NCBI GenBank assembly: GCA_937872515.1
Contig: CALMSX010000060.1
Coordinates: 1 to 53,197 of the forward strand
Direction of reading: 5' to 3'
DNA length: 53,197 bases
DNA from: an uncultured Bacteroidota bacterium
GTDB taxonomy: Bacteria; Bacteroidota; Bacteroidia; Chitinophagales; Saprospiraceae
The position numbers and the translations under genes are program-made. The notes beneath the pieces were generated by a model. The model was not told the origin of the DNA, did no database searches, and saw nothing but the letters and a program-made list of their open reading frames with translations. Positions 30,904-49,101 of the stretch are shown piece by piece. Positions within the stretch are counted from its first letter, which is position 1, and each line of letters begins with the position of its first letter.

Positions 30904-30914
30904 AAGAGTGGTTT

Positions 30915-32241: not shown

Positions 32242-32631
32242 ATGAAAAGGCGATTGGCTACGCTACTACTTATCTTGTACATTTCGGCCATTGTTCCTAT
32301 TTCGGAATGGGCGAAAATTCCGTATTTGTGGGATCACTATTGTGAACACAAATTGGCCGATGCCAGTATGGACTTTTTCGACTTTATCAACCATCACTAC
32401 GACAACTGTCTTAAGGTCTATCCTGATGCAGAAAAGGACATGAAGCTGCCATTTAAGTCAGACCATCAATCCACCAACACTGTGTTATCCGTTTTGCCCA
32501 AAGAGATGCAACCAATAGTAGTGGTTAAATCACTTCCCACCAAGTTTATCAAAACCAGGTTTATATTCAACAATCATTTCACTTCTGCAGATGAGGCAGA
32601 TACCTGGCAACCGCCCAAACTTCTTGCTTAA
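32242..32631 (+). CDS. Small conserved exported protein of unknown function
   Basis: A 129-residue protein with an N-terminal hydrophobic segment (LATLLLILYISAIVPIS, about 5-21) that could be a signal peptide or membrane anchor. It then has a conserved-looking central block: KIPYLWDHYCEHKL, FFDFINHHYDNC and EKDMKLPFKSDHQ. I recognise this layout as a Bacteroidota family of unknown function, often placed ahead of redox or metal-related membrane genes. The several His and Cys residues hint at metal or heme contact (inference). It is the first gene of the multiheme cytochrome operon, 55 bases before the cytochrome b gene. Confidence 0.7.
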   Translation: MKRRLATLLLILYISAIVPISEWAKIPYLWDHYCEHKLADASMDFFDFINHHYDNCLKVYPDAEKDMKLPFKSDHQSTNTVLSVLPKEMQPIVVVKSLPTKFIKTRFIFNNHFTSADEADTWQPPKLLA

Positions 32632-32686: not shown

Positions 32687-33547
32687 ATGAATAAAACCGC
32701 TCATAGCATTTATCTTGCTACGTTGACATTGATAGTCATAGCAGTAACCATTTATCTGTTTTACTATGGTGCTTCGTATTACAATACCAGTATGGAAGAA
32801 CGTTTCTACCATGCGGATCACGCTGTGCTAAAGCCAAGTGGCATTTATGGCCATGGTTTGGGTATCATAGGTACTCTGCTAATTTTAATCGGAGTGTTTG
32901 GTTACATGGCGCGCAAGAGGTATCGTATTTTATCCAGGATAGGGGTACTTAAACATTGGTTAGAGTTCCATATCTTTTTGTGTACACTGGGTCCTATTAT
33001 GATTCTTTTTCATACCTCTTTTAAGTTTGGAGGAATTGTATCCATCAGTTTTTGGAGCATGGTGGCTGTGGTGGCAAGTGGGGTGATCGGAAGGTTTATC
33101 TATTTGCAGATTCCCCGCACCATCCAGGGCAGGGAGTTGAGCATTGCAGAGATCGGTGAAATGCAGGAAGACATATCTTACCGGGTAAGAGAAGAAGCGG
33201 GTGAGCATTCAGAAGATGTATTACAGGCCTGGCACGATGTTATTCAGGAAAGAAAAAACCAGGGCAATCCCGGATTTTTTAAAACGTACATTCGCGACTA
33301 TCAGCTTAAATCGCGTTTTGCTGGCCAGTTAAAGGCCTGGAACATATCCACCCGTAATAACCGAATCATTACCGGATTGATAGCCACAGAACTGGGCATT
33401 CAGAGAAAAATTGAAAGACTCATGTTAATGCAAAAACTATTCAGGTATTGGCACATTGCCCACCTGCCTTTTGCATTGATCATGCTTATCATCATGGTCA
33501 TCCACGTAGGAGTGACCCTTGCTTTTGGCTATAAATGGATATTTTAA
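32687..33547 (+). CDS. Membrane b-type cytochrome (quinol/NAD(P)H electron-entry subunit)
   Basis: A 286-residue inner-membrane protein with about five transmembrane segments: 8-27, 55-74, 92-110, 118-141 and 257-280. Histidines suited to bind heme b lie in or next to them: H56, H90/H95 and H109, then H256, H259 and H273 in the last segment. A charged cytosolic or periplasmic loop of about 110 residues separates segments 4 and 5. The layout resembles cytochrome b561/NarI-like electron carriers, though no named family is certain. The next gene (membrane-anchored Fe-S flavoprotein) begins 1 base after its stop, so it probably passes electrons between that protein and periplasmic cytochromes. 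Confidence 0.7.
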   Translation: MNKTAHSIYLATLTLIVIAVTIYLFYYGASYYNTSMEERFYHADHAVLKPSGIYGHGLGIIGTLLILIGVFGYMARKRYRILSRIGVLKHWLEFHIFLCTLGPIMILFHTSFKFGGIVSISFWSMVAVVASGVIGRFIYLQIPRTIQGRELSIAEIGEMQEDISYRVREEAGEHSEDVLQAWHDVIQERKNQGNPGFFKTYIRDYQLKSRFAGQLKAWNISTRNNRIITGLIATELGIQRKIERLMLMQKLFRYWHIAHLPFALIMLIIMVIHVGVTLAFGYKWIF

Positions 33548-33548
33548 C

Positions 33549-34886
33549 ATGGGCTGGTCAATAGAAGAAATCGGAATTTATGCTGTGGCTGCGCTCATGT
33601 GTGGACTCATTCTTATGATCTATTTGCGCAAGCTTAAAAAAGAATCTAAGGAGGTTGATGTAAAAATTGAAAAAGCCATAGCGGAAGGAGTTCATGAGCC
33701 TGTTTCTCTCCACCCTTACATCGATTTGAATACCTGCATCAAAAGTGGTGCCTGTATCATTGCCTGTCCTGAACAGGATATACTTGGCATTCGAAATGGC
33801 AGAGCTACCCTGATCAATGCATCCAAATGTGTGGGCCATGGAGCTTGCTTTCATGCCTGTCCGGTGGAGGCCATTTCACTCCGCATCGGTACAGAAAAAA
33901 GGGGGGTAGACCTACCTCATGTCAATCAGAATTTTGAAACCAATGTACAGGGAATCTTTATCGCCGGCGAATTAGGTGGCATGGGCCTGATTAAAAACAG
34001 TGTGGAGCAGGGCAAACAAGCAGCCGACGAGATCAAAAAATCAATCGAAAAAAATCACGGTGCTACCTACGATTTGGTCATTGTTGGCGCAGGTCCGGCG
34101 GGCATCTCCGCTTCAGTACAAGCCAAATTGAACGGACTGAATGCTGTGATTTTAGAACAAGATAGTTTGGGAGGAACTGTGTTTAATTTTCCCCGGGCCA
34201 AGGTTGTGATGACCAACCCGATGGACCTTCCGGGCCATGGCAAGGTAAAATTATTTGAGACTAGCAAGACCGAATTGCTCACACTTTGGAATGATGTCAT
34301 CCATAAACACAACATCGATGTCAGAGAACAATCCAAGGTAGAAGGCATTTCCAAAAAAGACCACAACTTTGTTGTCACCACCCACGACGGTGAACAATAC
34401 CACACCCATAAAGTATTGCTTGCCATTGGCAGAAGAGGTACACCACGTAAGCTGGGCGTGCCAGGAGAACAAATGGAAAAAGTAGCTTACCGTTTGCTGG
34501 AACCAGAGCTCATCCAGGGTAAAAAGGTTTTGGTTGTAGGCGGAGGCGATTCAGCTATAGAAAGCGCTATATTATTGGCCCAGGGCAATAAAGTTACCTT
34601 GTCTTACCGCAGCGAAAAATTCAGTCGCTTAAAACCCAAAAACGAAAGCAGCATACAGAATGCGATCAAAACGCAATTGTTAGATGTAGCATTTAATACC
34701 AATGTTGTAAGTATAGAAAGTGACCATGTGATGATGACGGGGCCGGAAGGTGAGTTTAAACTTGACAACGACCTGGTCTACATCTTTGCCGGCGGTGAGC
34801 TGCCCACCCAGTTTTTACAGAAATCGGGAATAGAAATACAAAAACGTTTTGGTTATACAGTAAAATCGCACAAAAGGGTAGGATGA
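33549..34886 (+). CDS. Membrane-anchored Fe-S/FAD/NAD(P) oxidoreductase with permuted order
   Basis: A 445-residue protein. A membrane anchor spans about 7-26. A ferredoxin-like region has two Cx5Cx3CP motifs: C63, C69, C73 and C94, C100, C104. Next comes a segment at about 129-162 (TNVQGIFIAGELGGMG) that resembles the last FAD-binding stretch of thioredoxin-reductase-like proteins. Only then do the FAD-binding GAGPAG (180-185) and the NAD(P)-binding VVGGGDSAIESA (about 330) follow. The C-terminus stops after FAGGELPTQFLQ, without the usual final FAD segment. The start at 33549 follows the upstream stop by 1 base; an upstream ATG at 33519 would overlap it. It is the likely NAD(P)H entry point of the electron-transfer operon. 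Confidence 0.8.
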   Translation: MGWSIEEIGIYAVAALMCGLILMIYLRKLKKESKEVDVKIEKAIAEGVHEPVSLHPYIDLNTCIKSGACIIACPEQDILGIRNGRATLINASKCVGHGACFHACPVEAISLRIGTEKRGVDLPHVNQNFETNVQGIFIAGELGGMGLIKNSVEQGKQAADEIKKSIEKNHGATYDLVIVGAGPAGISASVQAKLNGLNAVILEQDSLGGTVFNFPRAKVVMTNPMDLPGHGKVKLFETSKTELLTLWNDVIHKHNIDVREQSKVEGISKKDHNFVVTTHDGEQYHTHKVLLAIGRRGTPRKLGVPGEQMEKVAYRLLEPELIQGKKVLVVGGGDSAIESAILLAQGNKVTLSYRSEKFSRLKPKNESSIQNAIKTQLLDVAFNTNVVSIESDHVMMTGPEGEFKLDNDLVYIFAGGELPTQFLQKSGIEIQKRFGYTVKSHKRVG

Positions 34887-36730
34887 CCACCGGAAACCAT
34901 ATAACAAAGTTTATGCAAACTGCAATGACGGCCATACTTGTCTTTGGCATTCATGCTGCATGGGCTCAGTTATCTCCCGGTAAATTGACCAAGGCCCATG
35001 CCAAGCTCGAAGGTTTGGCCAATTGTACTCAGTGCCACACCATTGGTGCAAAAATTTCCGAGCAAAAATGCCTTGACTGCCATAAAGAACTAAAAGCCAG
35101 AATTTCTGCTAAAAAGGGATATCACGTTTCATCGGCCGTAAAGGGCAAAGAGTGTATAACTTGTCACAGCGAACACCACGGTCTCAACTTCGACATGGTT
35201 AGGTTTGATAAAAAGACCTTTGACCACAAGCTTACCGGCTATGAATTAAAAGGTGGTCACAAAATCCAGGACTGTGCCAAATGCCATAAGCCGGACAACA
35301 TAACCATAGCCACCCTCAAAAAGAAGCCCGAAACTTTTCTCGGCCTTGACACCAAATGTCTGAGCTGTCATGAAGACTACCACCAAAAAACCATGTCTTC
35401 GGATTGCGCTTCTTGTCACAATTTTACCAAGTTTAAGCCGGCCTCTTTGTTCAATCATGCCAAAACTGAATTTCCTTTAGCAGGGGCACACAAGACGGTT
35501 GATTGTGCATCGTGTCACAAAGTAGAAATGCGAAATGGCAAAGAGTTTCAAAAATTTGCTGTGGCCTCCTTTAAGAACTGCAGTAGTTGCCACAACGATG
35601 TACACAAAGGTGAATTTGGTACACAATGTAAGGCCTGCCACAATGAAGAATCATTCCATAAAATAACTGCGGGCCCCAGCTTCAATCACAATGTTACCGG
35701 ATTTACCCTGGTGGGCAAACACCATAAAATAGATTGCAAAGCTTGTCACGAGAAAAGTTTTGGATTGGGCGGACACTTCAAAGAGTTTAAAGCCAGGGAT
35801 GTCAAAGATTGTCGCACCTGCCACAAAGATGTACATGAGGGAAAATTTGGAAACCAATGTTTAGACTGTCACAACCAAAACTCATTCAAATCGGGCAAGA
35901 CCCCACAATTAGACAATTTTGATCACAGTTCTACCGGTTTTGCCTTATTGGGTAAACACCAGAAAGTGGATTGTCGCACCTGTCATAAACAAGATCTGAC
36001 CACACCCATGGCCCATGATCAATGTGCCTCTTGCCACAAAGATTTTCACGAAGGGGACTTCGCGACAAAAAAAGACAGATATCCCGATTGTGCCAGCTGC
36101 CACACTGAGCAAGGCTTCCTGCCTTCTACTTTTACCATTGAGCAGCATGAAAAAAGTAGTTTTGTTTTAGCTGGGGCTCACGTGGCAACACCCTGTAATG
36201 CCTGTCACTGGAAAGAAAATAAATGGGAATTCAATCTTCCCCAACAGGATTGCCATTCTTGTCATGAAGACATCCATAAGGGTCATATAGATGAAAAATA
36301 CTATGGTCAAAACTCATGTAAAAGCTGTCACAATACAGATTCATGGCTTGCCGGAAATTTTGATCATGGACTTACCGGCTGGGCCTTGGAAGGTAAACAT
36401 GCTGACGTTAGTTGCGGTAAATGTCACATGGATAAAAAATCGGGTACAAGGGTACAACGCTTTAGAGATTTGGATGCTCAGTGCGTTACCTGTCATGACA
36501 ATGTACATGGAAGCCAGTTTGAAGTGGAAGGGAAAACAGATTGCAACCGGTGCCACGGCTTCAAAGAGTGGAAGGCAGACCGCTTTGACCACAGCCTGAC
36601 TCGGTTTAAATTAGAAGGAGGTCATCAGGGTGTGGCCTGTGTAAAATGTCATAAAGAAGTAGTCATAGAAGGTAAAGTAAGTGTCAATTATAAAATAGAA
36701 AAATTTGCATGCATAGACTGCCATCAATAA
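34883..36730 (+). CDS. Periplasmic multiheme c-type cytochrome, 23 CXXCH motifs
   Basis: A 615-residue exported cytochrome with 23 CXXCH heme-attachment sites, about one per 26 residues. A signal peptide ends near AAWAQ (about residue 29); an alternative start at 34913 would give a shorter signal. Seven copies of a motif like FDHxxTGFxLxGxHxxxxCxxCH recur (for example FDHSSTGFALLGKH and FDHGLTGWALEGKH). Their extra histidines are probable distal ligands, giving bis-His hemes. The same motif occurs in the next gene, so the two share ancestry. The start overlaps the flavoprotein stop by 4 bases, and the end overlaps the giant cytochrome by 22 bases. It probably moves electrons across the periplasm. 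Confidence 0.92.
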   Translation: MTTGNHITKFMQTAMTAILVFGIHAAWAQLSPGKLTKAHAKLEGLANCTQCHTIGAKISEQKCLDCHKELKARISAKKGYHVSSAVKGKECITCHSEHHGLNFDMVRFDKKTFDHKLTGYELKGGHKIQDCAKCHKPDNITIATLKKKPETFLGLDTKCLSCHEDYHQKTMSSDCASCHNFTKFKPASLFNHAKTEFPLAGAHKTVDCASCHKVEMRNGKEFQKFAVASFKNCSSCHNDVHKGEFGTQCKACHNEESFHKITAGPSFNHNVTGFTLVGKHHKIDCKACHEKSFGLGGHFKEFKARDVKDCRTCHKDVHEGKFGNQCLDCHNQNSFKSGKTPQLDNFDHSSTGFALLGKHQKVDCRTCHKQDLTTPMAHDQCASCHKDFHEGDFATKKDRYPDCASCHTEQGFLPSTFTIEQHEKSSFVLAGAHVATPCNACHWKENKWEFNLPQQDCHSCHEDIHKGHIDEKYYGQNSCKSCHNTDSWLAGNFDHGLTGWALEGKHADVSCGKCHMDKKSGTRVQRFRDLDAQCVTCHDNVHGSQFEVEGKTDCNRCHGFKEWKADRFDHSLTRFKLEGGHQGVACVKCHKEVVIEGKVSVNYKIEKFACIDCHQ

Positions 36731-39700
36731 TATTTTTGTTGATGGTGCTGATGGCTCAGTTGTCAGCACAAACGTCACCCCACGGCGCAGGCTTTGCCAT
36801 GGATTGTGCCAAGTGTCATAGTCCGGAAAGCTGGTCATTCTCCGGCAAGGCTCAATTTTCTCATGACAGCACTGGGTTTGCGCTTACCGGTCAACACCGA
36901 GATCTGGAATGTAAGTCGTGTCATACCAGTCTTGAATTCAAAAAAATTGACAATGCCTGCATCTCGTGTCATACAGATGTACACCAACAAACCGTAGGTA
37001 ATGATTGTGCACGGTGCCATACCTCTGACTCCTGGTTGGTAGACAATGTCACACAATTACATGAGAAGACCTCATTCCCACTAATGGGTGTACACGCCAC
37101 GGTCAATTGTAATGCATGCCATGACAATGAGACCAACCTTCGGTTTGCGCCTACCGGCGTGGATTGTATTTCATGTCACCGGGCTGACTATGTAGCAACC
37201 CAGCAGCCTGATCACGTTAAGTTTGGATTTTCAACCGATTGCGCATCTTGTCATAGCTTGACCGTAAGTGATTGGAATACCAACAAGGTCGATCACTCGT
37301 TTTTTCCGTTGGAAAAAGGACATGCCATTGATGATTGCGCCAAGTGCCACCAGGGCGGTGATTATTCATCGGCAATGGCAGATTGTTTCAGCTGCCATGA
37401 GAATGATTACATGGCTACAATCAACCCCAATCACAGCGTCCTTGCTTTTGGCACAGATTGTAGACAATGCCACGATTTAACACCGGGTTGGAAGCCCGTG
37501 GATTATCGAGAACACGACGCCAAATTTTTTCCAATTTATTCAGGCAAACACCAGGGTACCTGGGAGTCGTGTGCCTCTTGCCATACAGATCCCAATAATT
37601 ATGCTTCATTTTCATGCGTAATTTGTCACAAAGATCCGGAGACCAGCAATCTTCACCAATTGGTATCCGGGTATACTTATCAGGACAATGCCTGTCTTGC
37701 CTGTCACCCTACCGGTGATGCAGACATGGCTTTCAACCACGATGCCACCCAATTCCCTTTGACAGGGGCTCACAAGATTTTGGATTGTATTGCCTGTCAT
37801 GCCAACGGATATGCAGGTACACCCATTGAGTGTAAGTCGTGCCACCTGGAAAACTTTACCTCCACCTCAGACCCCGACCACCAGGCCTTACATATTTCTG
37901 AAGATTGTAAGGCGTGTCATACGACTGAACCGGGCTGGGCGCCTGCAAGATTTGATGTACACGATGACTATTATCCATTGTTGGGGGCGCATGCGGCAGT
38001 AGCCAATGATTGTGCCTTGTGCCACAACGGTAGTTACAACAATACACCCAATAATTGTGCAGGTTGTCACATAGACGATTACAATACCACCACTGACCCC
38101 AACCATAAGTTGAGTCAGATATCTCAGGACTGTGCATCGTGCCATGGACAAGCCGCATGGCAGCCATCTACTTTTAACCACGATGGCATGTATTTTCCAA
38201 TCTATTCCGGTAAACACAACGGTGTATGGATGCAGTGTACTGAGTGTCATAAAAATCCATCCAACTACGCAGAATTTACCTGTGTTAGTTGCCACCAAAA
38301 TCCGGAGACCAATGATGTTCACACCGGTGTGAGTGGGTATAATTACAATGACAATGCCTGTCTTGCCTGCCACCCTACAGGTGACGCCGACAATGCATTT
38401 GATCACAACAATACCCAATTTCCTTTAACCGGGGCTCACGTAAATGTGGACTGTATCAGCTGCCATGCCGCGGGATTTGAAGGGACTTCAACCCTGTGTG
38501 TGGATTGTCATCAGTTAGATTTTAATGGCACCACCAACCCCAACCATACGGGTCTGGGCTTTGCTACAGATTGTAAACAATGTCACACGACAGATCCGGG
38601 ATGGGCCCCTGCATCCATGCCCAATCACAACGATTATTATGTTTTAAATGGTGCCCATGCCGGCATTGCCAATGACTGTGCAACGTGCCACAATGGCAAC
38701 TACAACACGACCCCTAATACCTGTGCCGGTTGTCACCAGGCTGACTACGATGCCACCACTGACCCCAATCACTTTCAGGCTCATTTTCCCAACGACTGTG
38801 CATCCTGTCATAACGAAAGTGCATGGCAACCTGCTACCTTTAACCACGACGGTCAATATTTCCCCATATATAGTGGCAAGCACCAGGCTACCTGGACCCA
38901 GTGTACAGAGTGTCACACCAATCCGGCGAATTATACAGAGTTTACCTGTGTGACCTGTCACCAAAACCCGGAGACCAATGACCAACACAATGGTATACCC
39001 GGTTATATTTATCAGTCAACTGCCTGTCTTGCTTGTCACCCCACCGGTGATGCAGATTTGGTCTTTGATCACAACACCACTCAATTCCCATTGACTGGCG
39101 CGCATACTACGATAGATTGTATCAGCTGTCACGCCAATGGCTTCCAGGGAACTTCGACTGCATGTATGGATTGCCACCTTACCGATTTTAATTCAGCCGT
39201 CAATCCCAACCACGTTGCTTTGGGCATACCTACCGATTGTGCTCAATGTCACACTACAGCTCCTGGTTGGTCGCCAGCCAGTTTTGCCATCCATAACCAA
39301 TATTATCCTTTGAATGGGGCCCATGCCGCAATTGCCAATGATTGTGCTACTTGTCACAATGGCAATTACAACAATACACCCAATACCTGTGCTGCTTGTC
39401 ACAATGATGATTATGTAGCTACCACCAATCCGAATCACGTGGCAGCTCAGTTTCCCAATGACTGTGCTTCTTGTCATAGTGAGCAAAACTGGGTGCCATC
39501 TACCTTTAACCACGATGGTCAGTATTTCCCTATTTACAGCGGAAGTCACAATGGCCAATGGACACAGTGTGTAGATTGTCACAGTAACCCTGCCAACTAT
39601 GCCCAGGTTGTGTGTATTACCTGTCACCAAAATCCGGAGACCAATGATCAACACCAGACCGTAGGAGGTTATGTGTATACCAACGCAGCTTGTTTGGCAT

Positions 39701-42700
39701 GTCACCCCACGGGCGAGGCCAATGGCATGTCATTTAACCATAATACCACCGCCTTCCCATTAACAGGGGGCCATATTGGAGTAGATTGTATTCAATGCCA
39801 TGCCAATGGATACCAGGGCACTTCAACTGCATGTGTAGATTGTCACATGGACAATTTTACAGCTAGCATAGAGCCCAACCACGTTGCCCTAAACGTCCCT
39901 ACCGATTGTGCCATGTGTCATACCACCACACCCGGCTGGGCACCTGCCACTTTCCCGATCCACAACCAATACTATGCATTGAATGGCGCGCATGCTGCCA
40001 TTGCTAATGATTGTGCACAATGTCATAGCACTGGCTATAACAATACTCCCAATACCTGCAACGGGTGTCACAATGCCAATTACCTGGCTACTACCAATCC
40101 CAACCACGTGACTGCTCAATTCCCAACGGATTGTGCATCTTGTCACAATGAAAACGTTTGGATGCCGGCTAACTTTGACCATGATGGCTTGTATTTTCCG
40201 ATTTACAGTGGCAGTCACAATGGTCAATGGACACAGTGTATAGATTGTCATAACAACCCTGCCAATTATGCCCAGGTGGTTTGTATCACCTGTCACCAAA
40301 ATCCGGAGACCAATGATGAACACCTGACTGTAGGGGGCTATGTATATACCAATGCGGCTTGTTTGGCGTGTCACCCTACGGGCGAGGCCAATGGTATGAC
40401 ATTTAATCACAATACAACCGCATTTCCATTAACCGGAGGCCACGTAGGAGTAGACTGTATCCAGTGTCATGCCAGTGGCTATCAGGGAACAACTACTGTA
40501 TGTATGGATTGCCACATGGATAACTTTACTGCCAGTGCTGAACCCAATCACGTGGCTTTAAATATGCCCACTGATTGTGCCATGTGCCATACCACCACAC
40601 CTGGTTGGGCACCGGCTACCTTCCCGATTCACGACAACTATTATGCGTTAACAGGTGCCCACGCTGCCATCGCCAATGACTGTGCACAGTGCCATAGCAG
40701 CGGTTATAGTAATACACCGAATGATTGTAATGGCTGCCACAATGCTAATTTTACGGCAGCTGTCAACCCCAATCACGTAGCGCTGGGTCTGTCAACAGAT
40801 TGTGCAAGTTGCCATACTACTGCCCCAGGTTGGGCTCCTGCTACATTTGCCGTTCACGATGATTATTATCCATTAAATGGAGCCCATGCTGCCATTGCCA
40901 ATGATTGTGCAGAATGCCACAATGGTAATTATACCAATACACCGAATACTTGTAATGGTTGCCACAATAGTGAATACCAGGCTACCACCAATCCCAATCA
41001 CGTAACTGCCAACTTCCCAACTGATTGCGCAGCGTGTCACAATGAAAACAACTGGACACCGGCAACATTTAACCACGATGGCTTGTACTTCCCTATATAC
41101 AGTGGCGAACATCAAGGGGAATGGACATCCTGCACAGATTGTCATACCAATCCCAACAATTATGCGGTTTTCACTTGTCTGACGTGCCACACCAACCCTG
41201 AGACCAATGACGAACACGAAGATGTAGGTGGATATGTATACAACAGTCCGGCTTGTCTGGCTTGTCACCCACAGGGAGAGGCGAGTCCTTCATCCTTTAA
41301 TCACAATGCTACTGCCTTCCCTATTACAGGAGCGCACCAGGGCTTGAGTTGTGTTGAATGCCATTCTGCTGGGTATCAGGGTACATCTACGGCTTGTGTT
41401 TCATGCCACAATACCGAGTTTCAGGGTGCTGCAGAACCTAACCACGTGGCATTAAATTTCCCAACTGATTGTGCCATGTGTCATAATACATCGGCTGGAT
41501 GGGCACCTGCTACCTTCCCAATTCACAGCAATTATTATGAATTAACTGGAGCGCATGCCTCCATTGCCAACGACTGTGCTTTATGCCACAGTGCTGGTTA
41601 TAGCAATACCCCCAATACTTGCAATGGCTGCCATAACGACAATTATACAGCAGCGGTCAATCCCAATCACGTAGCCCTTGGCTTGTCAACAGATTGTGCA
41701 TCTTGTCACACCACAGCTCCCGGTTGGGCACCCGCCACCTTTGCTGTCCACGATAATTACTATCCTCTGACAGGGGCCCATGCCTCGATAGCTACTGATT
41801 GCGGACAATGTCATGCTGGAGGAAACTACAATAACACGCCCAATACGTGCAATGGTTGTCACAATGCCAACTACATTGCAGCTGCCAATCCAAACCACGT
41901 GGCTCTTGGCTTGTCTACTGATTGTGCATCATGTCACAGTACAGTACCTGGCTGGGCGCCAGCTACCTTTGCTGTCCACAATACCTATTATCCTCTGACT
42001 GGTGCACATGAAGCAATTGCCACAGATTGTGAGCAATGCCATGCCGGAGGCAATTACAGCAATACGCCAAATACATGCAATGGTTGTCACAATGCCAACT
42101 ATGTTACAGCAGCCAATCCCAATCACGTTGCTCTTGGCTTATCCACAGATTGTACTTCTTGCCATACTACAGCTCCCGGCTGGTCGCCTGCCACTTTTGC
42201 GATACACAATACCTATTATCCATTGACAGGCGCCCATGCAGCTATAGCGACTGATTGTGAGCAATGCCATGCCGGAGGAAATTACAGCAATACACCCAAT
42301 ACGTGCAATGGTTGTCACAATGCCAATTATGTAGCTGCGGCCAATCCGAATCACGTAGCCTTGGGTTTATCAACCAATTGTGCATCCTGTCACACTACAG
42401 CCCCTGGTTGGTCGCCTGCTACCTTTGCGGTACATAATACCTACTATCCATTGACCGGTGCCCATGCGGCCATTGCTAATGATTGTGAAGAGTGCCATGC
42501 TGGAGGAAATTACAACAATACGCCCAATACGTGCAATGGATGTCACAATGCCAATTACGTAGCAGCATCCAATCCGAATCACGTTGCCTTAGGCTTGTCA
42601 ACCAATTGCGCAAGCTGCCACACCACGGCGCCTGGTTGGTCGCCAGCCACCTTTGCGGTGCACAATACCTATTATCCATTGACAGGGGCCCATGCCGCCA

Positions 42701-43323
42701 TAGCCAGTGATTGCGAAGAGTGCCATGCGGGTGGAAATTACAACAATACACCTAGTACATGCAACGGCTGCCACAATGCCAATTACATAGCTGCAGCTAA
42801 TCCTAACCACGTTGCTCTTGGCTTGTCAACGGATTGTGCATCTTGTCACACCACAGCCCCCGGTTGGTCGCCAGCTACTTTTGCTGTCCACAATAATTAT
42901 TATCCACTTATTGGTGCCCATGCTTCGATAGCTTCAGATTGTAGTCAATGTCATACAGGAGGAAATTACAGCAATACGCCCAATACATGTTTTGGATGTC
43001 ACGCATCAGAATACAATACTGCCAATAGTCCCAACCACATTTCAGCAGGCTTCCCTACCGACTGTGTCATTTGCCATGGTCAATCCAACTGGACACCATC
43101 AACCTGGGATCACGATGATTTGTATTTTCCTATCTTTAGTGGCGAACACGAAGGAGAATGGGATGACTGTAGTGATTGCCACACCAATCCTAATAATTAC
43201 AATGTATTTACTTGTTTTACCTGCCACTCACAATCTTCAACCAATGGAGACCACAATGGAGTATCCGGGTATCAATACAACAGCAATGCTTGTTACAATT
43301 GTCACCCCAACGGAGAAGAATGA
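36709..43323 (+). CDS. Giant multiheme c-type cytochrome, 88 CXXCH motifs
   Basis: A 2204-residue exported protein. The signal peptide is MHRLPSIIFLLMVLMAQLSA. I count 88 CXXCH heme sites spread over the whole mature chain, about one per 25 residues. After an N-terminal region like the 23-heme protein, a nine-heme module of 222-223 residues repeats (starting near 37729, 38395, 39061, 39730 and 40399; the fifth contains one extra three-heme unit). After a partial sixth module, a three-heme module of 76 residues repeats six times (41659-43026). Each unit keeps extra histidines in patterns such as FNHDGxYFPIYSGxH, NPNHVALG and YYPLTGAH that can serve as distal ligands. There is no T9SS tail, so it may sit in the periplasm or pass through the neighbouring barrel protein. 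Confidence 0.93.
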   Translation: MHRLPSIIFLLMVLMAQLSAQTSPHGAGFAMDCAKCHSPESWSFSGKAQFSHDSTGFALTGQHRDLECKSCHTSLEFKKIDNACISCHTDVHQQTVGNDCARCHTSDSWLVDNVTQLHEKTSFPLMGVHATVNCNACHDNETNLRFAPTGVDCISCHRADYVATQQPDHVKFGFSTDCASCHSLTVSDWNTNKVDHSFFPLEKGHAIDDCAKCHQGGDYSSAMADCFSCHENDYMATINPNHSVLAFGTDCRQCHDLTPGWKPVDYREHDAKFFPIYSGKHQGTWESCASCHTDPNNYASFSCVICHKDPETSNLHQLVSGYTYQDNACLACHPTGDADMAFNHDATQFPLTGAHKILDCIACHANGYAGTPIECKSCHLENFTSTSDPDHQALHISEDCKACHTTEPGWAPARFDVHDDYYPLLGAHAAVANDCALCHNGSYNNTPNNCAGCHIDDYNTTTDPNHKLSQISQDCASCHGQAAWQPSTFNHDGMYFPIYSGKHNGVWMQCTECHKNPSNYAEFTCVSCHQNPETNDVHTGVSGYNYNDNACLACHPTGDADNAFDHNNTQFPLTGAHVNVDCISCHAAGFEGTSTLCVDCHQLDFNGTTNPNHTGLGFATDCKQCHTTDPGWAPASMPNHNDYYVLNGAHAGIANDCATCHNGNYNTTPNTCAGCHQADYDATTDPNHFQAHFPNDCASCHNESAWQPATFNHDGQYFPIYSGKHQATWTQCTECHTNPANYTEFTCVTCHQNPETNDQHNGIPGYIYQSTACLACHPTGDADLVFDHNTTQFPLTGAHTTIDCISCHANGFQGTSTACMDCHLTDFNSAVNPNHVALGIPTDCAQCHTTAPGWSPASFAIHNQYYPLNGAHAAIANDCATCHNGNYNNTPNTCAACHNDDYVATTNPNHVAAQFPNDCASCHSEQNWVPSTFNHDGQYFPIYSGSHNGQWTQCVDCHSNPANYAQVVCITCHQNPETNDQHQTVGGYVYTNAACLACHPTGEANGMSFNHNTTAFPLTGGHIGVDCIQCHANGYQGTSTACVDCHMDNFTASIEPNHVALNVPTDCAMCHTTTPGWAPATFPIHNQYYALNGAHAAIANDCAQCHSTGYNNTPNTCNGCHNANYLATTNPNHVTAQFPTDCASCHNENVWMPANFDHDGLYFPIYSGSHNGQWTQCIDCHNNPANYAQVVCITCHQNPETNDEHLTVGGYVYTNAACLACHPTGEANGMTFNHNTTAFPLTGGHVGVDCIQCHASGYQGTTTVCMDCHMDNFTASAEPNHVALNMPTDCAMCHTTTPGWAPATFPIHDNYYALTGAHAAIANDCAQCHSSGYSNTPNDCNGCHNANFTAAVNPNHVALGLSTDCASCHTTAPGWAPATFAVHDDYYPLNGAHAAIANDCAECHNGNYTNTPNTCNGCHNSEYQATTNPNHVTANFPTDCAACHNENNWTPATFNHDGLYFPIYSGEHQGEWTSCTDCHTNPNNYAVFTCLTCHTNPETNDEHEDVGGYVYNSPACLACHPQGEASPSSFNHNATAFPITGAHQGLSCVECHSAGYQGTSTACVSCHNTEFQGAAEPNHVALNFPTDCAMCHNTSAGWAPATFPIHSNYYELTGAHASIANDCALCHSAGYSNTPNTCNGCHNDNYTAAVNPNHVALGLSTDCASCHTTAPGWAPATFAVHDNYYPLTGAHASIATDCGQCHAGGNYNNTPNTCNGCHNANYIAAANPNHVALGLSTDCASCHSTVPGWAPATFAVHNTYYPLTGAHEAIATDCEQCHAGGNYSNTPNTCNGCHNANYVTAANPNHVALGLSTDCTSCHTTAPGWSPATFAIHNTYYPLTGAHAAIATDCEQCHAGGNYSNTPNTCNGCHNANYVAAANPNHVALGLSTNCASCHTTAPGWSPATFAVHNTYYPLTGAHAAIANDCEECHAGGNYNNTPNTCNGCHNANYVAASNPNHVALGLSTNCASCHTTAPGWSPATFAVHNTYYPLTGAHAAIASDCEECHAGGNYNNTPSTCNGCHNANYIAAANPNHVALGLSTDCASCHTTAPGWSPATFAVHNNYYPLIGAHASIASDCSQCHTGGNYSNTPNTCFGCHASEYNTANSPNHISAGFPTDCVICHGQSNWTPSTWDHDDLYFPIFSGEHEGEWDDCSDCHTNPNNYNVFTCFTCHSQSSTNGDHNGVSGYQYNSNACYNCHPNGEE
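37729..41292 (+). repeat. Nine-heme module tandem repeat (666-669 bases, five units)
   Basis: Equivalent codons of the AFNHxxTxFPLTGxH motif start at 37729, 38395, 39061, 39730, 40399 and 41293. Spacings are 666, 666, 669, 669 and 894 bases. The last equals 669 plus 225, which corresponds to an inserted three-heme unit starting near 40765. Each normal unit carries nine CXXCH motifs. Confidence 0.9.
41659..43026 (+). repeat. Three-heme module tandem repeat (228 bases, six units)
   Basis: The codons for NPNHVALG-type sequence occur at 41659, 41887, 42115, 42343, 42571 and 42799, and the degenerate NSPNH equivalent at 43027: exactly 228 bases apart each time. Each unit carries three CXXCH motifs. 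Units differ at many synonymous positions while the protein stays nearly constant. Confidence 0.95.
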
Positions 43324-44936
43324 TGAAAAAAATATATAGCAGCATATTATTTTTATGTGTACTGGCAGGAAGTGTTTCAGCACAGCAAAAGGAATGGATA
43401 AAAGGAAGTATTTCATTTGCCAGCGCTGTCAATGTTTATGTAAGATTTGACAATACAACCGACATTAAAGAAGGGGATACTTTGTACATTGATGAAGCGG
43501 GACTATTTAAAGCAGCTTTGCTTGTTAAAAAGAAGTCGTCTCTTTCTTGTGTTACAGAACCATTGATAGCGGGTAAGGCGTGGACAACGGGAATGGTTGT
43601 GATGAGTCCCAAAGTGATGGAGAAAAAAGAAGAGATTAATCCAGTCCTTGTAAGTCCCACCCCGGTTGTGGTTACTGAAGATACGGCCAATACAGAAGCA
43701 ACTGACTCCAGTTCCACAAAAAAAGAAAAGGTGAGAAAACCACTCATCAATGGTCGTTTTTCTGCATCGACCAATGCCAGTCTGACAGATGGAGAAGATT
43801 ACCAGCGGATGCGTCTTGGGTTTACTTTTAATGTGACCAATATCGGAGGAGGCTATTTTTCAACTCAAAATTACATCACTTACCGGCACAGGTATGGCAT
43901 AGATCAACAGACCGGATTTTACGACGATTTTAAAATTTATGCATTGGCACTGGGCTATGACCGAAACGGCCACAGCATTTATTTGGGAAGGCGAATTAAT
44001 AATCGCATAGCCAATCTGGGTGCCATAGACGGTCTGCAATACGAAAAAAAGGCTGGTTCGTGGGTCGTTGGGGCCTTTGCAGGATCTAGACCCGATTACC
44101 TCAATTATACTTTTAATCCCACCTTATTGCAGGGAGGGGTACTGCTTGGTTATGAAAAACAAGGCGACAAAAATAGCAGTCAGACTTCCTTTGCCTGGGT
44201 TGAACAACGCAATGATGGCAAGACAGACAGGAGGTTTGCCTATTTTCAGCACAACAGCAATCTGGGCAAGAATGTAAATATTTTTGGTTCACTTGAAATG
44301 GACATGTATCAAAATGTTAGAGATACAGTGAGCAATAAGTTACAATTAACCGGTGCTTATTTTTCTGTGCGTTATCGTCCCTTTAAAACTTTTAACATAA
44401 CGGCATCGTATGACAACCGAAGAAATGTAATTTTTTACGAGAGCCAGAGAACTTATATTGATCAGTTGTTAAACCAGGAGACCCGCCAGGGCTATCGACT
44501 CCAGGCGGGTTGGCAGGTGATCAGAAACATCAATTTGAATGCATCTGTATTTTATCGTTTCCAGGAAAACCAGCTGAAGCCTACCAAAAATCAGGTGGTC
44601 AATTTAAATATCAGCAGATTCCCTTTACAAAACATGTCGCTCAATCTCAACTACAATACACTTGAGTCTTATTACTTCACGGGCAATATCTATGGGGGGC
44701 GATTGAACCACAGTGCCATGAAAGGCAAGCTGGGTCTGGAGGCCAGTTACCGCAAGGTCAACTACTCCTTCTTTAGCGGTGAGCAACAATTGAAACAAGA
44801 CATCTTTGGAATTTCTGCCAATGTTGTCATGGCCAGATTCACCACACTGATCCTGAGTTATGAAGGTACCTTTGAACCCAATAAAAAATACCACAGGTAT
44901 TTTATCACTGCTATACAACGTTTCAAAAACAAGTAA
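43323..44936 (+). CDS. Outer-membrane beta-barrel protein of the multiheme operon
   Basis: A 537-residue protein with signal peptide MKKIYSSILFLCVLAGSVSA. Residues about 25-105 form a small beta domain (GDTLYIDEAGLFKAALLVKK). A Thr/Glu/Ser-rich linker follows (about 110-155). From about 165 to the end, short amphipathic strands alternate with loops (RLGFTFNVTNIGGGYFST, LALGYDRNGHSIYLGRR, YFSVRYRPFKTFNITASYDN, GISANVVMARFTTLILSYEG), as in a 16- to 20-strand porin. The ATG overlaps the stop of the giant cytochrome (1 base, or 4 bases from the ATG at 43320). By analogy with porin-cytochrome conduits, it may insert the cytochromes into the outer membrane. Sequence identity to known MtrB-type porins cannot be judged here. 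Confidence 0.72.
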   Translation: MKKIYSSILFLCVLAGSVSAQQKEWIKGSISFASAVNVYVRFDNTTDIKEGDTLYIDEAGLFKAALLVKKKSSLSCVTEPLIAGKAWTTGMVVMSPKVMEKKEEINPVLVSPTPVVVTEDTANTEATDSSSTKKEKVRKPLINGRFSASTNASLTDGEDYQRMRLGFTFNVTNIGGGYFSTQNYITYRHRYGIDQQTGFYDDFKIYALALGYDRNGHSIYLGRRINNRIANLGAIDGLQYEKKAGSWVVGAFAGSRPDYLNYTFNPTLLQGGVLLGYEKQGDKNSSQTSFAWVEQRNDGKTDRRFAYFQHNSNLGKNVNIFGSLEMDMYQNVRDTVSNKLQLTGAYFSVRYRPFKTFNITASYDNRRNVIFYESQRTYIDQLLNQETRQGYRLQAGWQVIRNINLNASVFYRFQENQLKPTKNQVVNLNISRFPLQNMSLNLNYNTLESYYFTGNIYGGRLNHSAMKGKLGLEASYRKVNYSFFSGEQQLKQDIFGISANVVMARFTTLILSYEGTFEPNKKYHRYFITAIQRFKNK

Positions 44937-44975: not shown

Positions 44976-45728
44976 ATGAGAATCCTCTTTGCCCTCGTTT
45001 TGTTTTCATTTTTTGCTTGCGACTCAAAGCCCAAGGTTATCGTAGAAGATACCACAACCCAACCGACAGACGGCACCATGCCTGCTAACAATCCCTCGAC
45101 CACTGTGCCCGGTCAGGAGAGTGCCCAAGGCACCGATGTGCATCAGGTTAAGGCTGTAGAAATATTGCAGGCTGAAAAATACACTTATATGAAGGTAGTA
45201 GAGAATGCAGATACTTTTTGGATTGCAGCCTCCAAAATGGATGCGGCCAAGGGTAGAAGTTATTTTTACAGAGGTGGCCTGCTCAAAACCAATTTTGAAA
45301 GTCAGGAATTCAATCGCACCTTCGATAAGATATTTTTGGTATCTCAAATCATTGATGCTTCAGCCCACCCCGGTGGAAGAGGACAAGGAGGCGCTACCCC
45401 TTCCGTGGCCGATGTAGACATTAAAAAGGTGGCAGGAATTATGTCTCTTAGCACTCTTCTTGCTCAACCCGCCAAACATGCTGGTAAAGCTATTGTAGTG
45501 GGTGGAAAAGTAGTTAAAGTTAACAATGGCATCATGGGTAAAAACTGGATTCATATCCAGGATGGCACCTCTATCAAGGGTAAAAAATGCGACCTGGCTA
45601 TTACCACCCAGGAGAATATTCCGATGGGAGCAACTGTAGCCTTTGAGGGTAAAATTTTTGTAGACAAAGATTTTGGAGCGGGCTACCGGTATGATATCAT
45701 CATGGAAGAAGCGGTTGTTAAGAAATAA
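44976..45728 (+). CDS. Lipoprotein with OB-fold-like C-terminal domain
   Basis: A 250-residue lipoprotein with lipobox FFAC (C15). A low-complexity Thr/Pro linker covers about 20-50. Residues about 57-135 are a small beta domain (VEILQAEKYTYMKVVENADTF, then WIAASKMDAAKGRSYFY). Such modules with the KYTYMKV/WIA pattern occur with multiheme cytochromes in other bacteria, to my knowledge. Residues about 150-250 resemble an OB fold (GKAIVVGGKVVKVNNGIMGK, NWIHIQDGTS). It is the last gene of the cytochrome operon, 39 bases after the barrel gene and just before a strong terminator. A structural or assembly role for the cytochrome complex is likely but unproven. Confidence 0.7.
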   Translation: MRILFALVLFSFFACDSKPKVIVEDTTTQPTDGTMPANNPSTTVPGQESAQGTDVHQVKAVEILQAEKYTYMKVVENADTFWIAASKMDAAKGRSYFYRGGLLKTNFESQEFNRTFDKIFLVSQIIDASAHPGGRGQGGATPSVADVDIKKVAGIMSLSTLLAQPAKHAGKAIVVGGKVVKVNNGIMGKNWIHIQDGTSIKGKKCDLAITTQENIPMGATVAFEGKIFVDKDFGAGYRYDIIMEEAVVKK

Positions 45729-46008: not shown

Positions 46009-49000
46009 TCACAAATACAAGCCGTTTGAAAATTTGCTCCTATATCGAATGAAGGCGGCAATGCTCAGTATGGTCAATGAAATGGCAGTGTAATACACTT
46101 GTGACGGAATTGGAACAGGATCACCGGCAGCATATGAATGGAGACCAGATAAGTAATAATTGACACCAAAGTAGGTCATGATTACTGTAGCAAAACCAAA
46201 CAAAGAAGCGAAATTGAAAGCATAAAGACTTTTTAATCCCGGTATAAAACGCATGTGCAAGATAAACGAGTATACCAAAATGGTAACCAGGGCCCAGGTC
46301 TCTTTGGCATCCCAGCCCCAGTAACGACCCCATGATTCATTGGCCCAAACACCACCCAGGTAGGTGCCTATGGCAACCATAAACAAGCCACCGAGCAAAG
46401 TAATCTCACTTATGATCGAAAGCTCACGGACAGCTCTTGTGGTGTAGGCCATGTTTTTGTCTGTGGTAAAGACCATCAGGATTAGGTTGAGCATGCCAAT
46501 GACAGCACCCAACATCAAAAAGCCATAACTGCCTGCTTCGAGGGATACGTGGATGGTCAACCAGTAGGACTTAAGTACCGGCACCAAAGGGGTAATTTCT
46601 GGATCGAGCCAGCTCATACCCGCCACTAATAAGATGGTTGCAGCAAGGGTCATGGTAGCAGCGAGACCTCCCAACGACCTTTTAGAAAAAAGAATACCGG
46701 CCAGGGTGGTGGTCCATCCAATGTAGATCATAGATTCGTAGCCATTGCTCCAAGGGGCCCTGCCTGAGATGTACCATCTTAAACCTAGTCCAATGGTGTG
46801 AAAGGCAAAGCCTGCAATGACGGCATAAAAGGCAACATTGGACCACCTTTCCCTGTTGGCACTGGTTTTTAAAACAGTGTAAAAAAACATAGCAAGGATG
46901 CCCAGGGCAAGTAAGCCATAGTAGTTTCGCAGTCTTCCAAACACATCCAGTTTATTTAACAGCAATTCTGCTTTTATTTTGGAGTCTGATGGATAAACAG
47001 CTGCTGCATTGGTTTTCTGGAAGTTGGTAATTTTAGCAAGGCTGGCATCAGCGGCTCCATAATTTCCGGACTGAGCACCTTGACTCAGGTTTTGCAGGTA
47101 CTCCATAAAGAGGGTGCGCTGCGATTCGGTCCTTACATCGGCCCCCTGGTTTTGAAAAATATCAGCGGGAGAAAGCCAGGTATTGCTTGGGTCGTTGGGC
47201 ATCGGAAACAATTTGAACAAGCGACCGGAAAAGACCATGCTGGTGATGTTGACTTTTTCATCCAACTTGATGATGGTTTTTTCAAAGGTACCATGGTCTT
47301 TAGGATTCATGGTTTGTGCTTTTCGGATCTGGTCTTTGAAAATGTATTGACCGTCGGCGCCAAAAAACTGGGCATAGGCCACTCTTTTTTCAGTGGTGCC
47401 CAGCATTTGTGCTACCTGCGGATGCGTGCCAATGTGGATAAATGGTTTGCGTTCCCATTCCATAGGGGCATTCATCATTGACAACATCATTTGTTCAGGG
47501 CTCAGGCCATCTATGCTTTCGGTTTTAGCTACCTTTCGCATTATTTCTCCACACAGGGTATTCATAGGCTTAAACCTGCCATTGTTGTCCTGAACCACAA
47601 TGCTGCCAAATTTGGAGGCGTGATCGCCAGAGATAACAGCCTGAGCATTACTCGCAAAAGGAAGCATTAAGAGAAGTATGAAAACAAGATGGGAGTTGGA
47701 CTGCATTTCTCTTAATTTTTTAGATAAGTAAGTAAAGCGACTGGTCTTTGAAAAGAAGGTCATCATCAAACCAATGGTAAGAATAATGTAGCCTATATAG
47801 GAAATCCATGTGCCCCAAAAATCGTGGTTGACACTCAGGTAGGTGCCCAATTCATCCTGATCAAAAGAGGATTGGAAAAATCTGTAGCCTCCGTAATCGA
47901 GGATATGATTCATATAAATGCGCTGGTCTCTGTTGACCCCGTTTGCAGGATCTATCAGCGTTACTTCACTGGCATAAGAGGATGGGTTATCAGTACCCGG
48001 ATAACGCTCAAGGATAAAGTCGCGACATTTGATAGAGAAGGGTACGGTCTTGATTTTAGAACCATAGGATACTGCCAGTTGCAGGTCTTTGTAGAGCAGC
48101 TCGGCAGGTCGGCCAATAACGCCCTGGCGCCCGATTACAAAGGCTGGTTGGCTCTGCCCATTGACATCAATATTGAGGTTAAGTCCTGTGGCGCTTTCAC
48201 TTTTGACCTTGGCATCACCCGAAGAAAGTGTTACTTTACCTTTTGGCGTATAGCTGCCAACTACAAAATTGGAGCCGCCCATGGTATAAAGAGATCTGAG
48301 CATCAGCATATGGGTGCCCGGTTGTAACGTGTCGTTTTGTTGAGTAGCCATCACCATCTGGGTTACCGGCACCCCGGTTTGGAACATCAGCGAATCACCT
48401 TGCAGAAAGACATTAAAAGCACCTTCTTCAGGCGTATTGGTAAAATTGAAACGAATGCCATTTACCAGGACCTTGTCACCATATTTTACATAGTGTTCTT
48501 CGCGACCACCCATGCCCCCAATGACCACCTTGATCATGGGTTGACCATTGGGGTCATCTACTGCCGATTCTACCGGATTGGGCATAAAACTTTGGAGGTC
48601 TACTTTGATGAGGTCGCTGCCAATTTGATATGCTTTTGAAAAGGCATTATTGCCCAAAGAAGAAAAATAGACCGGTTCATCAAAGGAATACGATTTACCG
48701 TTTTTAATGACCCTGAATTGCAGGTATTGTTCAGTAGAAACAAAACTATTGGCGGTTTCTCCTTCACGGATGTGCATCATGCCCTCATAACCGAAATATC
48801 GGGTAACGCCGGCTCCGATCAAAATGATGATGATGGAAGCGTGAAAGCTCAGACTTGCCCATTTGCGGAGAGGAATGAGGCGGTATTTGTAAATATTGAA
48901 CAAGATGGTAGCTCCAAATAGAGCCAGTAAAATTTCAAACCAGCGACTGCGAAAAATGACGTGTTGGGCTGAAGAAGTGCCAAAATCGTTTTCAACAAAG

Positions 49001-49101
49001 GTGGCAACCCCAATGGCGATGGCAAACAGCAACATATACATGCCCGCTGCCCTTTCTGACACCAAAGCCTTTCCCCACTTGCTTAAATCCTGAATTTTCA
49101 T
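46009..49101 (-). CDS. ccsBA: Cytochrome c biogenesis protein CcsBA (fused ResB-CcsA)
   Basis: A 1030-residue membrane protein of cytochrome c maturation System II, which exports heme and attaches it to CXXCH sites. The N-terminal ~470 residues are ResB-like, with membrane segments at about 18-35, 56-72 and 84-100 and a large periplasmic loop. A middle periplasmic region follows (about 485-720). The C-terminal part is CcsA-like, with multiple membrane segments and the WWD-type heme-handling motif ESWGRYWGWDAKETW near residue 930. Fusion of both parts in one chain is common in Bacteroidota. It lies convergent to the multiheme operon, which carries 111 heme sites and would depend on this machine. 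It is separated by a 280-base spacer. Confidence 0.94.
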   Translation of the reverse strand: MKIQDLSKWGKALVSERAAGMYMLLFAIAIGVATFVENDFGTSSAQHVIFRSRWFEILLALFGATILFNIYKYRLIPLRKWASLSFHASIIIILIGAGVTRYFGYEGMMHIREGETANSFVSTEQYLQFRVIKNGKSYSFDEPVYFSSLGNNAFSKAYQIGSDLIKVDLQSFMPNPVESAVDDPNGQPMIKVVIGGMGGREEHYVKYGDKVLVNGIRFNFTNTPEEGAFNVFLQGDSLMFQTGVPVTQMVMATQQNDTLQPGTHMLMLRSLYTMGGSNFVVGSYTPKGKVTLSSGDAKVKSESATGLNLNIDVNGQSQPAFVIGRQGVIGRPAELLYKDLQLAVSYGSKIKTVPFSIKCRDFILERYPGTDNPSSYASEVTLIDPANGVNRDQRIYMNHILDYGGYRFFQSSFDQDELGTYLSVNHDFWGTWISYIGYIILTIGLMMTFFSKTSRFTYLSKKLREMQSNSHLVFILLLMLPFASNAQAVISGDHASKFGSIVVQDNNGRFKPMNTLCGEIMRKVAKTESIDGLSPEQMMLSMMNAPMEWERKPFIHIGTHPQVAQMLGTTEKRVAYAQFFGADGQYIFKDQIRKAQTMNPKDHGTFEKTIIKLDEKVNITSMVFSGRLFKLFPMPNDPSNTWLSPADIFQNQGADVRTESQRTLFMEYLQNLSQGAQSGNYGAADASLAKITNFQKTNAAAVYPSDSKIKAELLLNKLDVFGRLRNYYGLLALGILAMFFYTVLKTSANRERWSNVAFYAVIAGFAFHTIGLGLRWYISGRAPWSNGYESMIYIGWTTTLAGILFSKRSLGGLAATMTLAATILLVAGMSWLDPEITPLVPVLKSYWLTIHVSLEAGSYGFLMLGAVIGMLNLILMVFTTDKNMAYTTRAVRELSIISEITLLGGLFMVAIGTYLGGVWANESWGRYWGWDAKETWALVTILVYSFILHMRFIPGLKSLYAFNFASLFGFATVIMTYFGVNYYLSGLHSYAAGDPVPIPSQVYYTAISLTILSIAAFIRYRSKFSNGLYL

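What the first reader, a model, noticed from the sequence alone, without database searches (positions are those of the whole stretch)
36709..43323. A single gene encoding about 88 heme-binding sites
I count 88 CXXCH motifs in one 2204-residue exported protein, spread evenly at about 25 residues each. Well-studied outer-surface cytochromes have far fewer: 4 to 10 in OmcE, OmcS, OmcZ and MtrC. If fully loaded and extended, the protein would be a single-chain molecular wire. I do not know of a described function for such a giant cytochrome in Saprospiria-like bacteria.
Basis: partly seen in the sequence, partly recalled or inferred. Interest (0 to 1): 0.93.

Follow-up and report, generated by a model that had tools for sequence, protein, structure and literature searches.

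The report
Length-variable 88-heme wire protein
A Saprospiraceae-like bacterium has one gene for a protein with 88 heme-attachment sites, built from 29 repeats of a three-site unit and lying beside genes for a likely membrane electron carrier, a 23-site cytochrome and a predicted outer-membrane barrel; it would likely act as a long molecular wire carrying electrons out of the cell, and in related bacteria the same protein nearly always differs in length by multiples of three sites.

Summary
In detail: ORF 36709-43323 (+) encodes 2204 aa with 88 CXXCH, and all 176 Cys sit in them (shuffles: mean 1.1, maximum 6). It is not an even string: 29 triheme units of about 75 aa plus a last motif. Each unit has His for three distal ligands; with His25 that makes 88.

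The gene belongs to a tight operon: likely b-type membrane protein, Fe-S/FAD oxidoreductase, 23-site cytochrome, giant, predicted 22-strand barrel, lipoprotein. In relatives the middle cytochrome mostly has 23 or 20 sites (44 and 17 of 67 complete ORFs), whereas giant-like genes run from 10 to 94 and are 3n+1 in 83 of 88 complete ORFs and 90 of 92 end-to-end database proteins. A cultured strain carries the set, 40 sites long, on a plasmid.

Closest known: PCC3 (2017), whose inner-membrane motif signature is met. Giant Saprospiraceae cytochromes were reported in 2024. Not found in print: the Fe-S/FAD module, the three-site rule, the near-fixed inner against variable outer cytochrome. Heme loading, geometry, location and expression are untested.

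The parts
36709..43323 (+). Giant multiheme cytochrome, 2204 aa, 88 CXXCH, 29 triheme units plus a last motif, predicted signal peptide (read by eye), no Cys outside motifs
   Evidence: Pfam Cytochrome_C7 274.5 bits
36775..37737 (+). Head region of the giant (residues 23-343, motifs 1-13); short 13-motif paralogs elsewhere match this region
   Evidence: short ORFs of about 337-379 aa; matches to giant residues about 1-340
41695..43062 (+). Late homogeneous array, units 23-28, 76 aa / 228 bp each (TRF 41598-42989, period 228, 6.1 copies)
   Evidence: near relatives lack whole units in and just before this part
34883..36730 (+). 23-motif cytochrome (615 aa), likely the periplasmic partner; overlaps the giant's start by 22 bases
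33549..34886 (+). Fe-S/FAD oxidoreductase, 445 aa from its ATG (ORF listed from 33519): one predicted TM helix, 4Fe-4S dicluster domain, pyridine-nucleotide-disulphide reductase fold; 4-base overlap with the next gene
32687..33547 (+). Inner-membrane protein (286 aa), likely di-heme b-type: WX3HX13H at 91 and 255, SGXXG at 131
43320..44936 (+). Outer-membrane barrel, 538 aa, predicted 22 strands, no plug domain; 4-base overlap with the giant's end
44976..45728 (+). Lipoprotein-like 250-aa protein (Cys15 in all 46 aligned sequences), function unknown
32242..32631 (+). Small 129-aa protein upstream; membership of the operon uncertain
   Evidence: of 79 loci, found only in L056-L058, the nearest relatives
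46009..49101 (-). Fused ResB/CcsA cytochrome c maturation protein (1030 aa), next door on the other strand
   Evidence: a relative lies in 37 of 99 related loci

Best explanation
The 88-motif gene is the variable-length member of a gene cluster that likely forms a trans-envelope electron conduit of the PCC3 type, in which the giant protein would serve as the outer wire. Inferred path: cytoplasmic NAD(P)H, or a ferredoxin, would reduce the Fe-S/FAD protein; electrons would cross the inner membrane through the di-heme b-type protein, cross the periplasm along the 23-site cytochrome, and pass to the giant, which would contact or thread the 22-strand barrel and run outward as a chain of bis-His hemes. 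Shown: the gene order, the 88 motifs with matching His, the near-constancy of the inner cytochrome against stepwise variation of the giant, and the motif signature of the inner-membrane protein. Inferred: heme loading, location, direction of flow and wire function. By the printed relation of about 27 hemes per 200 A (PMC7096707, passage), 23 hemes would span about 170 A, near the periplasm's width, and 88 about 650 A. That would explain why the inner part is nearly fixed (a set gap) and the outer part free to vary in three-site steps.
Against: No data on heme loading, expression, location or current. The giant model is poor overall (pLDDT 70, pTM 0.30) and finds no PDB fold. That the giant is outside is inferred from size variation and barrel linkage; no lipobox is seen by eye, and a C-terminal secretion domain was not tested for. 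A 22-strand barrel may be too narrow; PCC3 porins are printed with up to 42 transmembrane regions, and Foldseek ranks pilus ushers first for it. The inner cytochrome is not strictly fixed: in the second set it has 20 in 13, 23 in one, 19 in two, 16 in one and is split in one of 18 loci. Departures from the order that are not contig ends: L061, L071 and L111 lack the upstream genes, L089 has no barrel in the next 4.6 kb, L114 has the inner-membrane genes on the other strand, and in L169-L172 and L174 the Fe-S/FAD gene follows the barrel. Five of 88 and three of 22 ORFs break the 3n+1 rule.
Confidence: 0.62

Rival explanations
1. Electron reservoir: the giant stores up to 88 electrons at or near the outer membrane, buffering the cell through spells without oxygen in flocs, rather than wiring them to a distance.
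For: The genome has three genes of the heme-copper oxidase family (one may be a nitric oxide reductase), so it likely respires oxygen; the 2024 sludge paper and the Gallionellaceae paper both raise a capacitor role (passages); size variation without a set length suits a store as well as a wire.
Against: Storage alone needs no barrel, yet the barrel is found in 28 of the 29 family genomes that have the giant. The two roles are not exclusive.
Confidence: 0.17
2. Electron uptake: the same parts run inward, taking electrons from Fe(II), minerals or other cells, as proposed for PCC3 in iron oxidisers.
For: PCC3 was found in Fe(II) oxidisers and modelled as flow from an extracellular donor to the quinone pool (passage); heme wires conduct both ways (established knowledge).
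Against: The operon carries an NAD(P)H-type flavoprotein, and reduction of NAD(P)+ by Fe(II) is uphill (established knowledge). The named relatives are Bacteroidota, not known to me as iron oxidisers (titles; physiology recalled).
Confidence: 0.13
3. Wholly periplasmic: the giant is a coiled or fibrous periplasmic cytochrome and the barrel serves another purpose, such as export of a reduced shuttle.
For: No lipobox or known surface anchor was seen by eye; the predicted barrel is smaller than the larger PCC3 porins in print.
Against: A partner of periplasm-spanning size lies in the same operon, and the barrel gene overlaps the giant's stop codon.
Confidence: 0.08

Closest known systems
PCC3 porin-cytochrome cluster (He et al. 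2017, PMC5566968; Gallionellaceae, PMC10734462)
   Same: Porin, inner-membrane protein of about 300 aa with two WX3HX13H and SGXXG, mid-size cytochrome (median 21; 21, 24, 27 in Gallionellaceae; 23 or mostly 20 here) and a larger, repeat-built cytochrome that varies widely (10 to 85 there).
   Different: An Fe-S/FAD NAD(P)H-type gene sits in the operon; giant sizes follow 3n+1, while the Gallionellaceae counts in print (10-18, 26, 28, 29, 33, 35, CX3CH and CX4CH included) do not; barrel of 22 predicted strands against up to 42; here in Bacteroidota (the word Bacteroidetes does not occur in the 2017 main text). Sequence homology of the cytochromes and barrel to PCC3 was not tested.
Saprospiraceae secreted proteins with many heme motifs (PMC11495043, 2024)
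   Same: Same family of bacteria and same kind of protein; some Bacteroidota proteins with more than 100 motifs.
   Different: The passages I read give no operon, partner, repeat rule or ligand analysis.
MtrCAB / DmsE-MtrA family
   Same: Cytochrome plus outer-membrane barrel; TIGR03508 gives 67.2 bits to the giant.
   Different: Below the family cut-off of 192.2; 88 and 23 sites instead of ten and ten.
Triheme c7 repeat cytochromes (TIGR04257 nanowire_3heme; GSU1996-type)
   Same: Three-heme repeat of about 75 aa; Pfam Cytochrome_C7 matches far above cut-off.
   Different: TIGR04257 is not listed for the giant and scores 28.1 of 40 bits for the 23-site protein. PDB 3ov0, recalled to be GSU1996, matches the profile only at E 0.014.
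OmcS, OmcE, OmcZ filaments
   Same: Proposed long-range heme wires (names and heme counts recalled).
   Different: Those polymerise many small subunits (recalled); here the chain length is written in one gene. None of them was among the PDB matches.

Membership tests
PCC3 | Inner-membrane protein of about 300 aa with SGXXG and two WX3HX13H motifs | tested here: met
   286 aa; WX3HX13H at 91 and 255, SGXXG at 131; two WX3HX13H in 52 of 58 aligned sequences, SGXXG in 58 of 58; the six His concerned or nearby are present in 58 of 58
PCC3 | Five TM helices in that protein, with the motifs on TM3, TM4 and TM5 | tested here: inconclusive
   Hydropathy peaks merge into four or five TM regions; the motifs fall in the third to last
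PCC3 | Porin gene in the cluster | tested here: met
   Predicted 22-strand barrel, pLDDT 85.9; porin, receptor and usher barrels as fold matches
PCC3 | Mid-size cytochrome, about 21-27 heme sites | tested here: met
   23 CXXCH; the 20-site form of other Bacteroidota lies just under that range
PCC3 | Large extracellular cytochrome with repeats | tested here: inconclusive
   Size and repeats met; extracellular location not testable here
PCC3 | Sequence homology of cytochromes and porin to the published PCC3 proteins | not tested
   No proteobacterial PCC3 cluster was reached; three proteobacterial plasmid hits to the inner-membrane protein have no large cytochrome beside it in their (incomplete) annotation
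DmsE/MtrA decaheme family (TIGR03508) | Score over the curated cut-off | tested here: not met
   67.2 (giant) and 44.8 (23-site) against 192.2 bits
c7 triheme nanowire domain (TIGR04257) | Score over the curated cut-off | tested here: not met
   28.1 against 40 bits for the 23-site protein; giant not listed at E 0.001
Cytochrome_C7 (PF14522) | Score over the gathering cut-off | tested here: met
   274.5 (giant) and 97.7 (23-site) against 24.8 bits
Polymeric cytochrome nanowires (OmcS kind) | Filament of repeated subunits | not testable with these tools
   Needs microscopy

The most novel reading that the evidence does not exclude
A length-tunable molecular wire: one gene sets the reach of an extracellular heme chain, and lineages lengthen or shorten it quickly by gaining or losing a 225-228 bp cassette that carries three heme sites and their three distal histidines, while the periplasmic segment stays near 23 or 20 hemes; the whole NAD(P)H-to-surface circuit, with its own heme-attachment enzyme, can travel on a plasmid.
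Probability: 0.35. Interest if true: 0.86.

Novelty: new variant of a known kind. Interest (0 to 1): 0.64.

Why it matters
If true, wire length in living cells is a countable, heritable trait: related loci differ by one triheme unit (cultured Lacihabitans sp. CCS-44 and CS3-21, 49 and 46 sites), so the distance dependence of biological electron conduction could be tested with natural length variants of one protein instead of engineered filaments. It would also place electron export in Bacteroidota of sludge and water that are mostly thought of as aerobes (recalled), and the plasmid copy in a cultured strain gives a complete parts list for work in a laboratory host.

Tried and rejected
Chance or artefact: rejected (shuffle control; purifying selection; end-to-end relatives). 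Plain PDB sequence search found nothing for the giant or the 23-site protein; a profile of the giant's first 680 mature residues reached the 16-heme cytochrome 1z1n at E 6e-7 and four weaker chains; the barrel profile found none. Foldseek and VIA-align found nothing for the giant model, which is weak overall, so this says little. MtrA/DmsE and c7-nanowire membership: below cut-offs. Rfam (gathering scores) and tRNA scans of the window: nothing. Pfam gave no family over its cut-off for the membrane protein, barrel, lipoprotein or small protein. Proteobacterial plasmid relatives of the inner-membrane protein (25% identity or less) lie beside a 2Fe-2S protein in metal-resistance regions, not in a PCC3-like cluster; of 27 plasmids with a match to the 23-site protein only Emticicia's covers it, the rest cover half or less. 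The searches scored only 7999 candidates each, so those families are larger than shown. The relative in L056 has an assembly gap, and its giant shows one odd spacing of 58, so its 82 is a weak point, though it is among the 88. The flag 'N' printed for exceptions tests for asparagine and means nothing; only the count of N per locus is used. P0061 and P0092 (115 and 112 motifs, another spacing) failed the both-ends test and are not in the 92; P0082 and P0105 are the two of 92 that break the rule.

Print searches: ten in an open-licence library only. No listed title or abstract start, and no passage I read, ties PCC3 to Bacteroidota or gives the three-site rule; the listings show at most 40 papers of each search, and subscription papers and preprints are not covered. 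PMC11495043, PMC11475568, PMC12977616, PMC7082337, PMC11936953, PMC7096707, PMC5566968 and PMC10734462 were seen as passages; all others as search listings.

Full report
What was checked. ORF 36709-43323 on the + strand is one open frame of 2204 aa with 88 CXXCH motifs; all 176 Cys are in those motifs. Shuffles of the same residues give 1.1 motifs on average, at most 6 in 2000. The window is a whole contig (C60) of a 4.71 Mb genome held as 124 contigs, rated 100% complete.

Anatomy of the giant. Motif spacing cycles 35/15/25, a unit of about 75 aa with three sites; 29 such units and one last motif give 88. Non-motif His are placed by rule: every unit has two between motif 1 and motif 2 and none between motif 2 and motif 3; after motif 3, 27 units have one and units 5 and 9 have two. 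With His25 before the first motif this makes 88 in-register candidates for distal ligands, plus two spare; bis-His ligation of every heme is thus possible, though not shown. By His position the units are of three kinds that cycle in the middle of the protein (9 sites, about 222 aa); late in the protein one kind is repeated (units 22-28). Adjacent units 23-27 are 80-85% identical in DNA (TRF 228 bp x 6.1). Against the near relative in L058 the window has four extra units (gaps of 75 and 229 aa), and against L057 an internal block of 228 aa, placed by the aligner between about residues 1573 and 1936; L057 is cut by its contig end.

Operon. Genes overlap or abut: membrane protein to 33547, Fe-S/FAD protein from the ATG at 33549 to 34886, 23-site protein 34883-36730, giant 36709-43323, barrel 43320-44936, then a lipoprotein at 44976. 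The membrane protein has two WX3HX13H motifs and SGXXG, and His56, His95, His109, His256, His259 and His273 are present in all 58 aligned sequences, which suits a di-heme b-type protein. The next protein has one predicted TM helix, a 4Fe-4S dicluster domain and a pyridine-nucleotide reductase fold, with no Cys in its reductase part (read), so it is unlikely to be a disulphide reductase. A fused ResB/CcsA maturation protein lies next door.

Relatives. A protein search found 640 relatives at E 1e-20 or better; of the 120 listed, all have at least 55 motifs and 22, the window's own entry included, have 88 or more. A scan of named genome contigs kept the 80 best of 391 (79 loci); it was made with an alignment of 15 giants, so it leans to such proteins. 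With 20 stretches taken from the 32 genomes of a phylum-wide barrel search, 99 loci were read by BLAST best match: full gene order in 63, barrel in 86, inner cytochrome in 84, Fe-S/FAD in 79, membrane protein in 75. Many of the rest are cut by contig ends, but L061, L071, L089, L111 and L114 depart for other reasons, and in L169-L172 and L174 the Fe-S/FAD gene follows the barrel.

Presence and absence. In 150 genomes of the family, giant, barrel and 23-site protein are each found in 29; the overlap of the printed lists gives 26 with all three, 28 with giant and barrel, and 119 with none. In 395 genomes of the phylum 32 have a barrel match at E 1e-20 or better, some partial.

The size rule. Of 88 complete giant-like ORFs with ten or more motifs, 83 have 3n+1 motifs, in 28 sizes from 10 to 94; the five others (18, 20, 29, 35, 39) lie in L110, L127 (two), L130 and L134, and the L110 and L127 stretches contain assembly gaps. 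In the second set 19 of 22 obey. Of 120 database proteins 105 obey, and of the 92 with both ends 90 do. These are related sequences, so the count is not a probability; the weight lies in many different sizes keeping one remainder. The partner gene behaves otherwise: 23 sites in 44 and 20 in 17 of 67 complete ORFs, the six others being split genes (L110, L132), an 18-site form (L122) and a separate 10-site gene (L074). In the second set it has 20 in 13, 23 in one, 19 in two and 16 in one of 18 loci, and is split in one. So it is nearly, not strictly, fixed. Among 48 locus pairs with barrels at least 55% identical (not independent), only 8 share the same giant size. Five single-contig genomes also carry the genes, with smaller versions of 22 to 43 sites (L155-L159), and Emticicia oligotrophica pEMTOL02, a complete plasmid record, has 40. 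The database search lists giants on contigs of 8.05 and 8.87 Mb (P0002, P0016: 106 and 85 motifs), so great length is not only an artefact of short contigs.

Mechanism. I judge an electron-export conduit most likely. The inner cytochrome is nearly fixed and, by the printed relation of heme number to length (27 hemes per about 200 A, PMC7096707), about as long as the periplasm is wide; the giant is free to vary, as expected of a part that ends in open space. An NAD(P)H-type entry module favours outward flow. The giant is strongly acidic (29 K+R, 180 D+E) and more so than its partner in 52 of 52 loci, which would suit electrostatic docking. Each of these last steps is inference.

Known or new. 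PCC3 in Proteobacteria (PMC5566968) already joined a porin, an inner-membrane protein with this very motif signature, a 21-site-class cytochrome and a larger one of up to 85 sites; Edwards et al. (PMC7096707) wrote that such a protein might pass out through the porin. Giant Saprospiraceae proteins were counted in 2024 (PMC11495043). What I did not find in print (ten searches) is the Bacteroidota operon with its Fe-S/FAD gene, the 3n+1 rule with matched His, the contrast of inner and outer cytochrome, and the plasmid-borne set. I file it as a new variant of a known kind.

Noticed in passing
locus L046 8624-9670 (own genome, contig C5): A second, short cytochrome of 348 aa with 13 CXXCH matches the giant's head region but has no barrel gene of this family in the 20 kb read; similar 13-site genes sit inside the operon in other genomes.
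   Followed up: partly
locus L175 (Emticicia oligotrophica DSM 17448 plasmid pEMTOL02): The whole set with its own cytochrome c maturation gene lies on a 100-kb plasmid of a cultured strain (recalled to be the type strain).
   Followed up: partly
proteins P0061 and P0092: 115 and 112 CXXCH motifs with a 16/25/32 spacing; 115 would exceed the 113 called the record in a 2020 paper. Host not named; ends not verified.
   Followed up: no
window 20852-27562: A 2236-aa secreted protein made of repeated beta-sandwich-like units, with a C-terminal stretch that by eye resembles a type IX secretion signal (read).
   Followed up: no
window 30277-31937 (-): A beta-carbonic anhydrase gene next to a bestrophin-family channel gene, kept beside the operon in L056-L058.
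   Followed up: no
loci L048 and L124 (same contig): One barrel gene lies between a 37-site giant and a second giant-like gene of at least 37 sites that is cut by the contig end.
   Followed up: no
loci L056 and L057: Two contigs of one metagenome-assembled genome (Go_SlAct_bin_393) both begin the operon with the same-looking upstream genes; a doubled operon or mixed strains.
   Followed up: no
loci L169-L172 and L174: In distant families the Fe-S/FAD gene follows the barrel instead of preceding the cytochromes, and the barrel is only 21-23% identical.
   Followed up: no
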